From assembly GCF_026241095.1 (NCBI RefSeq), contig NZ_JAPFGB010000008.1, positions 186,001 through 250,000 on the forward strand: DNA of 64,000 nucleotides, given 5' to 3'. Under the pieces are notes generated by a model. It saw nothing but the letters and a program-made list of their open reading frames with translations, did not search any database and had not been told where the DNA came from. The DNA is from Saccharopolyspora sp. NFXS83 (lineage in GTDB: Bacteria; Actinomycetota; Actinomycetes; Mycobacteriales; Pseudonocardiaceae). Both the position numbers and the translations under genes were made by a program. Position 1 is the stretch's first letter; the number at the start of each line of letters is the position of its first letter. Below, piece after piece: positions 34,201 to 58,481 of the stretch.

Positions 34201-34989
34201 GTGGTCAGCAATACGACCGAATCGATCAACGACGAACTCGGCGGCACGTCCGACGGCGCCGGATCGACGAACGGTTCTCGCGGCGCGGAGGCGATCGTGA
34301 CCGACGTCCGAGGTGGCACAGCAGCGGAGCCGACCGCGCCCACCTCGTCGGTCCCCGAACAGCCGGGCACCGGCGAACTCAGCGACCGGCAGCTCAAGGT
34401 GCTCGAGTCGATCCGCAGCTGGATGCGGGAGCACGGCTACCCGCCGAGCGTGCGCGAGATCGGCGACGCGGTGGGCCTCACGTCCACCTCGTCTGTCGCC
34501 TACCAGCTGCGCGTGCTGGAGCGGAAGGGCTTCCTGCGGCGTGATCCGCACCGTCCGCGCACGGTGGGCGTGCTGGTCGCCGATTCCGAGCAGTCCGAGC
34601 TCGCCGGCCGCCCGAAGCCCGCGTACGTCCCAGTGGTGGGCCGGATCGCCGCCGGTGGACCGATCCTGGCCGAGGAATCGGTGGAGGACGTCTTCCCGCT
34701 GCCGAAGGAGATCGTCGGCGAGGGGTCGCTGTTCCTGCTCCAGGTCGTCGGCGACTCGATGACCGACCTGGCCATCACCGACGGCGACTGGGTCGCGGTG
34801 CGCCAGCAGCCGGACGCGGACAACGGCGACGTCGTGGCGGCGATGATCGACGGCGAGGCGACCGTCAAGACGTTCAAGCGCACCGAGGACCACGTGTGGC
34901 TCGTTCCGCACAACGAGGCGTACCAGCCCATCCTCGGCGACGACGCGACGATTCTGGGCAAGGTAGTAGCAGTCCTGCGCCGCCTCTGA
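34201..34989 (+). CDS. lexA: LexA repressor
   Basis: 262 aa with GTG 34201 (GGAGG 5 nt upstream). Winged helix-turn-helix ([33 protein letters not shown]) then the S24 self-cleaving domain. The cleavage site is A151-G152 (RIAAGGPIL), the catalytic pair is S186 (GDSMTD) and K223 (TVKTF), with the same spacing (34 and 37) as in E. coli. The N-terminus is about 60 aa longer than usual, acidic/Ser/Thr-rich. An alternative GTG at 34297 also has GGAGG 5 nt upstream and would give a more usual 230 aa. A palindromic repeat element starts 19 bp after the stop. Confidence 0.93.
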
Positions 34990-35007
34990 GGGACTTCCCG
35001 AAAGGGA

Positions 35008-35176
35008 TGATGTGCGTAGTGGTCGGGTGGCGGCACCTCAGTGTTCTTCTCGCTGCGGGATCAATTTCGCGAGTGGCTCCGCCACACACGAAATCGCTGT
35101 CCCTCGCGAGAAGAATGCTGAGAACCCGCTGCAGTGCCGGTTGCGAGAGTGGCCGCCGTCCAGCGGCTTCGCCGCT
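35008..35176 (+). repeat. Palindromic element copy A (after lexA)
   Basis: Begins 19 bp after the lexA stop with TGATGTGCGTAG and GGGTGGCGGCACCTCAG. The main stem is 35037-35053 against 35106-35122 (17 bp, two G-T pairs). The inner stems are ATTTCG/CGAAAT (35064-35069, 35089-35094) and GTGGC/GCCAC (35073-35077, 35081-35085). A distal small hairpin AGCGGC-TTC-GCCGCT ends at 35176. About 75 percent alike to copy C over the main ~120 bp (by eye). It lies between convergent genes. Confidence 0.75.
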
Positions 35177-35216
35177 GCCGGGATATCGATCATTGGTGCG
35201 CAGGTTGCTCGCGCTG

Positions 35217-42140: not shown

Positions 42141-42147
42141 TCGATCC

Positions 42148-42175
42148 GCGGTGGGCGCCGATCGGCGCCCACCGC
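42148..42175 (+). terminator. Hairpin after the DUF349 gene
   Basis: Arms 42148-42160 and 42163-42175 form a 13-bp stem just after the stop. No T-run. Confidence 0.7.
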
Positions 42176-42256
42176 TCGGGGCCGCCCCGGAAACCTCACG
42201 ACCTGTTCTTGCCCGCGAGCGACCGCGCTACGTGCCAACGGGTTCGTTGTTCGGTC

Positions 42257-42368
42257 AGAGGCGAAGCCGCTGGGCACCGGAGCAATCGGCATGGCAGTGG
42301 GTTCGCGGCGTTCTTCTCGCCGCGTAGAACGCCGCGGTTCCGCCGACCCCGTCCCCTGCGCGAAATCA
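42257..42368 (-). repeat. Palindromic element copy B (short form)
   Basis: In the sense of the gene ending at 42374 it starts 5 bp after its stop with TGATTTCGCGCAGG and GGGGTCGGCGGAACC. It then has a perfect 11-bp hairpin (42304-42314 with 42326-42336) where A and C have the long stem. The distal AGAGGCGAAGCCGCT module (42257-42271) is shared with copy A. It looks like a shortened version. Confidence 0.65.
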
Positions 42369-42373
42369 GAACC

Positions 42374-42973
42374 TCAAGGCCGGGTCAGCACCACGCGGAT
42401 CCATTGCACGGCCAGCACCACCATGCACAGCGCGGCGAGCACCAAACCCCACGAGGGGCCGCCCGAGGGCACGGTCTGGCGCGACCAGATCGCGATCATG
42501 CCTTCGAAGGACACGATGATGGCCGCCATCCCGGCCACCCACGCGATCGCCCAGCGGCGGGTGATGAGCGCCAGCGCACCGATCAGCACGCCGACGATGG
42601 TGGCGTTGAGCGCGAACAACCTGGGCAGCAGGCCGACGTCCAGAGCCGGGTCCGCTTGCCCGAGCAGGATCTCCAGGCCGGTCGAGTCCCCGATCCACGG
42701 CAGCAGCGAGCTGACGATCAGGACCAGGATGACGGCCGCGATGGTGACGGCCTTGCTACCGGGGTCGATGCGCCGGAGCAGGTCGCGTTCGGCCTGGGAG
42801 AGGCTCCGCCGGTCGGCGCGGTCCTGGTCGGTTCCGCTCGTGTCCGATGGTTCCGTGCGCTGCACGTCGGTCCCTTCCTGAGCGTCGAGGTCCGGGCGAT
42901 CCGAGTCGCCGGGTTCCGCCGGTTCTTCCGGCTCGGGACGGGATCGCCGCTCGTCGTCGCTCAACAGCCACAT
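42374..42973 (-). CDS. Membrane protein downstream of miaB (Rv2732c-like)
   Basis: 199 aa with an acidic N-terminal ~70 aa and about four hydrophobic helices ([75 protein letters not shown]). The ATG at 42973 overlaps the end of miaB by 13 bp. In mycobacteria a similar membrane gene follows miaB. The start is uncertain because no clear Shine-Dalgarno is seen. Function unknown. Repeat element B begins 5 bp after its stop. Confidence 0.75.
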
Positions 42974-57960: not shown

Positions 57961-58039
57961 TCATCGAGCCGACACGCCAACACCGTCACCCTTCCGCGTG
58001 AAGCATGATCGCCATCGAGCGGCGGCCTCCGCCTTCTAC

Positions 58040-58275
58040 AGCGGCGAAGCCGTGCAGTAGGGCGGGGGCGGGCGAAGCCACGCCTGCCTCGCGGCCGAAG
58101 GCCGTGCCTGTACGCGCGCCAGCGCATAGCCCACGTCGAAAACCTGGTCACCCGCGGGTTCTCAGCGGCTTCCTCGCGAGGACGGCTTTTTCCCTCGTGG
58201 CGGGGCCACTCGGGAAAAAGATCCCGCAGCGAGGAAACCGCTGAGGTTCCGCCACCCCACCACCTACGCAAATCA
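58040..58275 (-). repeat. Palindromic element copy C (recA upstream)
   Basis: In the sense of DUF3046 it starts 11 bp after its stop with TGATTTGCGTAGG and GTGGCGGAACCTCAG. The stem is 58154-58201 with 58205-58252 on one axis: CTCAGCGG/CCGCTGAG (58161-58168, 58238-58245), TTCCTCGC/GCGAGGAA, CTTTTTCCC/GGGAAAAAG, GTGGC/GCCAC with a GGG loop. The distal module has several GGCGAAGCC-like hairpins (from 58040). It lies between DUF3046 and the recA promoter. Confidence 0.75.
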
Positions 58276-58286
58276 AGCGAGGAGAT

Positions 58287-58481
58287 TCAACGACGCGCGG
58301 TGGGCACTTCGAAGGTGTCGCAGAGGGCCAGCCACACCTGCTTCGGCGAGAAACCCGCTTCCAACGCCTCGTCCACGGTTCGGCCGCCGAGCTCCGACAT
58401 CACGTGGTCCTCGGCGAGCATCTCGGCTCGCAACCGGCCGAACTCATCGGCCATGCGTTCGCGGAAATCGGTGTGTCGCAT
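58287..58481 (-). CDS. DUF3046 small protein
   Basis: 64-aa DUF3046 protein (MRHTDFRERMADEFG, then GFSPKQVWLALCDTFEVP). Always close to recA in actinobacteria; function unknown. ATG 58481 by family. Repeat element C begins 11 bp after its stop. Confidence 0.88.
   Translation of the reverse strand: MRHTDFRERMADEFGRLRAEMLAEDHVMSELGGRTVDEALEAGFSPKQVWLALCDTFEVPTARR

What the first reader, a model, noticed from the sequence alone, without database searches (positions are those of the whole stretch)
35008..35176. Three-member family of long palindromic elements placed right after stop codons
Copies A (after lexA), B (after the membrane gene downstream of miaB) and C (after DUF3046) all start 5-19 bp behind a gene's stop, in the same sense as that gene. 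They open with a TGATKTGCG/TGATTTCGC block and a GGTGGCGG-NACC block, then a hairpin. Elements with a fixed place and orientation relative to stop codons could be terminators, 3' protectors, regulatory RNAs, or small mobile palindromes that target gene ends. I know no described family with this layout.
Basis: partly seen in the sequence, partly recalled or inferred. Interest (0 to 1): 0.75.

Follow-up and report, generated by a model that had tools for sequence, protein, structure and literature searches.

The report
Repeated hairpins parked behind stop codons
The palindromes belong to a large, apparently unnamed family of folded DNA repeats that sit a few bases behind the ends of genes in one family of soil bacteria; they resemble known bacterial repeats but fit none exactly, and what spreads them is unknown.

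Summary
A and C are full copies and B a shortened copy of one family; 150 of 150 scored candidates in this genome matched (cap reached), 144 over the whole model. Each has a leader, a 104-nt imperfect palindrome with strong covariation, and an exchangeable 3' module. None of 145 placeable copies lies inside a called gene. 110 have a sense gene upstream; their 5' end sits a median of 7.5 bp after its stop codon, far from random in tandem gene pairs. Relatives occur in 67 of 249 sampled Pseudonocardiaceae genomes (14 of 46 genera); all 19 positives among 298 genomes of the order were in that family. Sites are empty in sister species, and single-copy orthologues keep the hairpin through double substitutions. 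In three relatives copies follow the assumed replication direction (weak or absent in two closer ones). No Y1/RAYT transposase was found in the most element-rich genomes, stop-codon identity is irrelevant, and stem mismatches do not favour sense RNA. Best reading: a REP/ERIC-like mobile palindrome working as a gene-end hairpin, mobiliser unknown; a new variant of a known kind. Function is inferred, not shown.

The parts
35002..35024 (+). Copy A, 5' leader, beginning 12 nt behind the lexA stop codon (34987-34989)
35025..35129 (+). Copy A, core palindrome
   Evidence: (R1, 112.3 bits), fold (z -5.46)
35130..35185 (+). Copy A, 3' module type I with the GCGGCTTCGCCGC hairpin; end approximate
42297..42348 (-). 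Copy B, shortened core without inner arm, 25 nt behind the stop of the ORF ending at 42374
   Evidence: (32 bits, E 2.7e-5)
58258..58280 (-). Copy C, 5' leader behind the DUF3046 stop codon (58287-58289)
58154..58257 (-). Copy C, core palindrome
   Evidence: (123.7 bits), fold (z -7.69)
58030..58153 (-). Copy C, 3' module type II (GACGTGGGCTATGCGC... and small TTCG hairpins); its far end is approximate

Best explanation
This is a Pseudonocardiaceae family of dispersed, copy-number-variable, non-coding palindromic elements that behave like REP/ERIC-type mobile repeats. Shown by computation: many copies, placement a few bp behind stop codons, a conserved covarying fold, empty sites in sister species, different 3' modules at one orthologous site. 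Inferred: copies are spread in trans by a recombinase not identified here, and are taken up or kept behind stop codons because there the long hairpin, which folds on either strand, serves as a gene-end structure (transcription stop or mRNA 3' end, bidirectional between convergent genes) without harming a promoter or reading frame.
For: 144 matches over the whole model in the own genome, cap reached. 0 of 145 placeable copies inside a called gene; neighbours in element orientation: convergent 74, tandem sense 36, tandem antisense 28, divergent 7. Gap after the stop: median 7.5 bp, quartiles 3 and 12 (110 copies); in ++ tandem pairs the element lies at 2-4% of the free gap (KS p 2.5e-11 and 1.5e-18, n 13 and 21). 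Covariation over 37 cores of 5 genera: 171 cells with double changes against 54.8 shuffled, 95.4% of cells paired against 79.7%, covariation score 0.397 against 0.110 shuffled and at most 0.109 in slid controls. lexA site occupied in G000 and G001, 13-bp gap in G002, 54 bp in G003, 111 bp without a match in G004 and G005; DUF3046 site occupied in G000, G001, G002 and empty in G003; one G003 copy without a match in the five other species. A site behind gatB in three species whose genomes gave one match each has four double substitutions in the stem between two of them. Both strands of A and C fold strongly as RNA.
Against: No transcript data. No regular T tract: TTTT within 15 nt after the core in 38 of 145 copies, and none in +40..+75 of type I copies. 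At one site the element lies between the stop and a terminator-like hairpin that is kept in all four species aligned, so it is not needed there for termination. No mobiliser and no consistent target-site duplication found. Tandem-antisense copies (27 typed of 28) are not anchored to either end of their gap (KS p 0.45 and 0.23). The number of pairs with any double change is only modestly above shuffles (15 against 12.3; 5 of 500 shuffles reach it).
Confidence: 0.55

Rival explanations
1. The element enters single-stranded DNA at the replication fork: a recombinase recognises the folded strand on the lagging-strand template, as HUH/Y1 transposases and group IIC introns do (recalled), and gene-end hairpins are the preferred landing site.
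For: Copies follow fork direction (origin taken at base 1, terminus at half length): 31 of 33 listed in G017, 86 of 103 listed in G018, 93 of 127 in G003. In convergent pairs alone, where gene sense predicts one half, 42 of 50 do so (p 1.2e-6). A GTGG or GTAG tag stands at the foot of the palindrome in 111 of 145 copies, like the GTAG tag of REPs.
Against: Weak in G001 (89 of 150, p 0.02) and absent in the 50 listed G002 copies (22 of 50). No Y1 family match in G000-G003, G018 or G019; four other element-bearing genomes have one. Origin and terminus were assumed, not mapped. Preference for strongly expressed leading-strand genes could mimic part of it.
Confidence: 0.22
2. It is a structured cis-acting RNA or terminator class inherited in place and kept by selection, with no mobility of its own.
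For: Covariation across five genera and at a single-copy orthologous site behind gatB; spacing from stop to core mostly 30-45 nt in several genera, though 10 nt at gatB.
Against: Empty orthologous sites and species-only copies; copy number from 1 to over 100 between genera. In the own genome G.T and C.A mismatches in the stem are equal (62 and 61); selection on the sense RNA alone should favour G.U.
Confidence: 0.13
3. It is an ordinary selfish repeat that lands at random and survives only where it does no harm, so the stop-codon position is a by-product.
For: No copy inside called genes, few between divergent genes. The convergent share (74 of 145) is close to the share of gene 3' ends that face each other (0.48-0.51 in four regions of 64-75 kb).
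Against: In tandem ++ gaps with a median of 149 or 268 bp free on the far side, copies still sit at 2-4% of the gap. Conserved fold at a single-copy site.
Confidence: 0.1

Closest known systems
REP / BIME / REPIN elements with RAYT transposases
   Same: Dispersed extragenic palindromes, mostly behind coding regions and between convergent or unidirectional genes; GTAG tag at one end; the CGTC group apparently lacks a dedicated transposase (PMC3733652, passages including part of the abstract). In E. coli a significant proportion was reported 1-20 nt behind the nearest ORF, and that paper itself counts 446 of 4,072 predicted REPs within 15 nt of a stop (PMC12306157, passages).
   Different: Core of 104 nt instead of 20-40 bp, exchangeable 3' modules, no Y1/RAYT match in the most element-rich genomes, anchored by one end at mostly 3-12 bp behind stops.
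ERIC / MITE-type intergenic palindromes
   Same: Size of 100-200 bp, one large imperfect palindrome, intergenic, copy number very different between relatives (recalled for ERIC).
   Different: No consistent target-site duplication found and no clear terminal inverted repeat defined; the ERIC sequence itself was not compared.
MIRU (mycobacterial interspersed repetitive units)
   Same: Small, apparently mobile actinobacterial repeats placed at a fixed point relative to reading frames (PMC12548453, one passage).
   Different: MIRUs are described there as inserting at start codons with an internal ORF coupled to the gene; here the element follows stop codons, the gap varies and the stop codon is not selected. 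An internal ORF was not sought.

Membership tests
REP/REPIN-RAYT | short palindrome unit of 20-40 bp | tested here: not met
   104-nt core; size definition from the start of the abstract of PMC3733652
REP/REPIN-RAYT | GTAG-type tag at one foot of the palindrome | tested here: inconclusive
   GTGG 84 and GTAG 27 of 145 copies
REP/REPIN-RAYT | Y1 (RAYT) transposase gene in the genome | tested here: not met
   PF01797: no match in G000-G003, G018, G019; matches in 5 of 17 genomes searched: G004, G005, G010, G017 (with copies) and G012 (no copies)
REP/REPIN-RAYT | extragenic, behind coding regions | tested here: met
   138 of 145 border at least one gene's stop end
MITE / ERIC | terminal inverted repeats and target-site duplication | tested here: inconclusive
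   Shared words of 7 nt or more between the two flanks, observed against cross-pair expectation: G000 49 of 145 against 30 (partly words inside type II modules), G018 8 of 48 against 8.8, G017 7 of 28 against 5.7, G003 6 of 20 against 4.0, low-copy set 4 of 20 against 4.3, G010 4 of 7 against 1.2, G019 2 of 7 against 0.4
MITE / ERIC | related autonomous transposon | not tested
   Only the Y1 family was searched
MIRU | sequence-specific DTGA target (recalled) | tested here: not met
   TGA share at elements 82 of 92, elsewhere 495 of 556, Fisher p 1; spacing varies
Intrinsic terminator | G+C-rich hairpin followed directly by a T run | tested here: not met
   TTTT within 15 nt after the core in 38 of 145 copies only
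Intrinsic terminator | stops transcription | not testable with these tools
   no RNA data
Known Rfam family | match above gathering score | tested here: not met
   0 matches in the window and in 12 loci from 5 genera

The most novel reading that the evidence does not exclude
A previously undescribed mobile system of Pseudonocardiaceae in which a folded element, read from one strand at the replication fork, is placed with single-end precision a few bases behind stop codons by a recombinase unrelated to RAYTs, recognising gene ends by structure or by termination rather than by sequence, and thereby supplies genes with exchangeable 3' ends.
Probability: 0.2. Interest if true: 0.88.

Novelty: new variant of a known kind. 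Interest (0 to 1): 0.62.

Why it matters
It is an abundant interspersed repeat of a bacterial family rich in antibiotic producers (recalled), with over a hundred gene ends in some genomes carrying the same covarying hairpin. It gives a natural set of candidate gene-end parts, a test case for how a repeat can find stop codons without reading their sequence, and a link between repeat orientation and replication that can be tested directly in culture.

Tried and rejected
Rfam: no family. Y1/RAYT as mobiliser: no match in G000-G003, G018, G019. MIRU-like stop-codon target: stop identity equals background. CTAG/CTAA as target: suggestive in G019 only (TAA/TAG stops 4 of 6 against 5 of 20, p 0.14), not general. 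Copy-specific pairing between leader and trailer: none beyond cross-pairs (1 of 68 and 2 of 69 above the 99th percentile). Target-site duplication by longest shared word: some excess in G000, G010 and G019, none in G018 or the low-copy set, no fixed length or place. Plasmid and phage collections with copy A: no match at 1e-5. IMG/VR viral contigs and GTDB genome contigs with one exact pattern of 29 fixed bases: no match; such a pattern misses diverged copies, and records near the own genome may be left out. Sense-RNA selection by wobble counting: not supported (G.T 84 and C.A 135 over all sets, where shared ancestry inflates counts; 62 and 61 in G000). Literature: ten searches listed no description of this family; only open papers are held, and four were opened for passages.

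Weak points. Genes were called with a home-made codon-usage finder that missed DUF3046, so copy C was counted as divergent; 'inside a gene' means more than 40 bp of overlap with a called gene that is not itself mostly inside the core. The 145 copies are those with at least 200 bp of flank on each side out of 157 with nhmmer score 40 or more; 12 were dropped. Copies come from the best-scoring candidates (150 of 9,259 first-look candidates scored), so decayed copies are under-sampled. The fork test assumes origin at base 1; for G017 33 of 41, for G018 103 of 117 and for G002 50 of 97 matches were listed and used. For G003 I used 127 of 145 matches: 12 of the dropped rows are the opposite strand of a copy already counted and six are further weak matches, five of which are co-oriented (counted by eye). 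Neighbour classes in relatives rest on 28 (G017), 48 (G018) and 21 (G003) copies, fetched from the best matches and not at random. In the family and order searches only 16 and 13 candidates per genome were scored.

Full report
What is there. The window lies in a 6.9-Mb draft genome (G000:C69:186001-250000). Its relative G004 has a contig of the same length as one of Saccharopolyspora sp. HNM0986 (384845 bases), so the genus is most likely Saccharopolyspora, family Pseudonocardiaceae. Copies A and C score 112 and 124 bits with a covariance model of the family; B scores 32 bits and is a shortened copy.

The family. A DNA search with copy A scored 40 of 314 candidates and all 40 matched. The element has three parts: a leader (about GGCTCGTTCTGCTTnGGTGGTC, from 23 nt before the core), a core of about 104 nt, and a 3' module. 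Of 145 copies, 68 carry module I (a GCGGCTTCGCCGC hairpin about 32 nt behind the core), 69 module II, and 8 could not be typed. Of 145 cores 141 are distinct; three of the four identical pairs were printed, and they differ in the leader or in the version of module II. At one orthologous site the module is I in G002 and II in G000 and G001. Modules can therefore be exchanged between copies.

Fold. Within the own genome, 15 of 30 predicted pairs show changes on both sides. Over 37 cores from five genera, again 15 of 30 do (12.3 expected from shuffles, reached by 5 of 500); more telling, 171 cells show double changes against 54.8 shuffled, 95.4% of cells are paired against 79.7%, and the covariation score is 0.397 against 0.110 in shuffles and at most 0.109 in slid controls. 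An AAC/AAC internal loop next to the basal helix is nearly invariant. The best case is a genus in which three species gave one match each at 1e-5 (150 candidates scored in each), at one site behind a gene that is gatB by Pfam in one species and plainly the same protein in the other two. The loop is identical, yet the stem carries four double substitutions between two of them. No second copy was found there to donate them. Selection for pairing, or copying of one arm onto the other during replication, could both do this. Mismatches in the outer stem of 133 own-genome copies are 62 G.T, 61 C.A and 59 others; selection on the sense transcript alone should favour G.T. A structure needed on both strands, or in DNA, fits better.

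Position. Of 157 distinct copies, 12 near contig or stretch ends were set aside. Of 145, none lies inside a called gene; in element orientation 74 lie between convergent genes, 36 between tandem sense genes, 28 between tandem antisense genes and 7 between divergent genes. One of the 7 is copy C, whose DUF3046 gene my finder missed. For the 110 with a sense gene upstream, the gap from stop codon to leader has median 7.5 bp (quartiles 3 and 12), and 93 have the core within 45 nt of the stop. In tandem sense pairs the element takes 2-4% of the free gap on the stop side (KS p 2.5e-11 for 13 type I, 1.5e-18 for 21 type II). Antisense copies show no anchoring. The stop codon itself is not selected: TGA 82 of 92 at elements, 495 of 556 elsewhere. 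The convergent share is what one element per gene end would give: about half of all gene 3' ends face another 3' end in four regions of 64-75 kb.

Turnover. The lexA-side gap holds an element in G000 and, diverged, in G001; it is 13 bp in G002, 54 bp in G003 and 111 bp without a match in G004 and G005. The DUF3046 site is occupied in G000, G001 and G002, with different but compensated stems, and empty in G003 (8 bases between the aligned flanks). A full copy in G003 has no match in the five other species, and two weaker copies in G002 have none in the three and five species in which the site could be aligned. In one of these the element lies between the stop codon and a terminator-like hairpin that all four aligned species keep.

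Distribution. Model R1 hit 10 of 41 genomes (own included), all in the same family, with 97 matches (the cap) in G000-G003 and 38 and 36 in the two other same-genus genomes; none of 16 genomes of other families of the order matched. Model R2, built from five genera, hit 67 of 249 family genomes in 14 of 46 genera and 19 of 298 genomes drawn from the order, all 19 in the same family; how many of the 298 lie outside the family was not shown. Copy number runs from 1 to more than 100. Plasmid and phage collections gave no match to copy A.

Replication. In three relatives the copies point with the replication fork if the origin is at base 1: G017 31 of 33 and G018 86 of 103 (listed matches only), G003 93 of 127. 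G001 shows 89 of 150 (p 0.02) and the 50 listed G002 copies 22 of 50, so the closest complete relatives of the window show little or none of it. Among 97 classified copies of the three relatives, those in tandem pairs are sense to the genes in 38 of 45, so gene direction contributes. In convergent pairs, where gene direction predicts one half, 42 of 50 follow the fork (16 of 17, 17 of 22, 9 of 11; p 1.2e-6), and of copies antisense to both neighbours 6 of 7 do. The genes in these loci are 59-64% on the assumed leading strand, as expected if origin and terminus are roughly right. Strand-specific entry into single-stranded DNA, or preference for strongly expressed leading-strand genes, would explain this; I cannot separate them here.

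What moves it. No Y1/RAYT match was found in G000-G003, G018 or G019; G004, G005, G010 and G017, which have copies, and G012, which has none, each have one or more. There is no consistent target-site duplication. One copy (L287) is flanked by an 11-nt direct repeat that includes the stop codon, and several copies in other genera end in CTAG or CTAA on both sides, which is a lead and not a result.

Comparison. By position and dispersal it works like REPs, which PMC3733652 (passages) reports mostly behind coding regions, one group apparently without a dedicated transposase, and of which a significant proportion lies 1-20 nt behind ORFs in E. coli according to PMC12306157 (passages). It fails two defining features of RAYT-linked REPs (unit size, Y1 gene). 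It is not a MIRU by the target test. No Rfam family matches. Ten literature searches in an open-access library listed no description of it. I therefore call it a new variant of a known kind. The gene-end role is inference from position, fold and both-strand symmetry; no transcript was examined.

Noticed in passing
G000 contigs C14, C20, C21, C26, C30, C35, C40, C47, C69: Nine of the 150 matches begin within 80 bases of a contig end or are cut by it: the assembly tends to break at this element.
   Followed up: no
L035, L036, L042, L043, L044, L056, L058, L149, L156: A shared 50-nt block (conserved over about 110 nt in the seven aligned) precedes the element leader in 9 of the 157 own-genome loci searched: a longer 5' variant, or a second repeat beside which the element stands.
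   Followed up: partly
L287, L366, L373, L353, L396 flanks: CTAG or CTAA at both ends of copies in G019 and some other genomes; L287 has TGAACACCTAG on both sides.
   Followed up: partly
G000:C45:293958-294584 (L167) and L164-L166, L168, L169: Each of the six same-genus genomes has a second LexA-like protein, 50-53% identical to the first; the own-genome one also has an element copy nearby (L167).
   Followed up: no
window 42145-42186: Separate perfect hairpin GCGGTGGGCGCCGATCGGCGCCCACCGC between copy B and the opposite gene, a likely native terminator beside the repeat.
   Followed up: no
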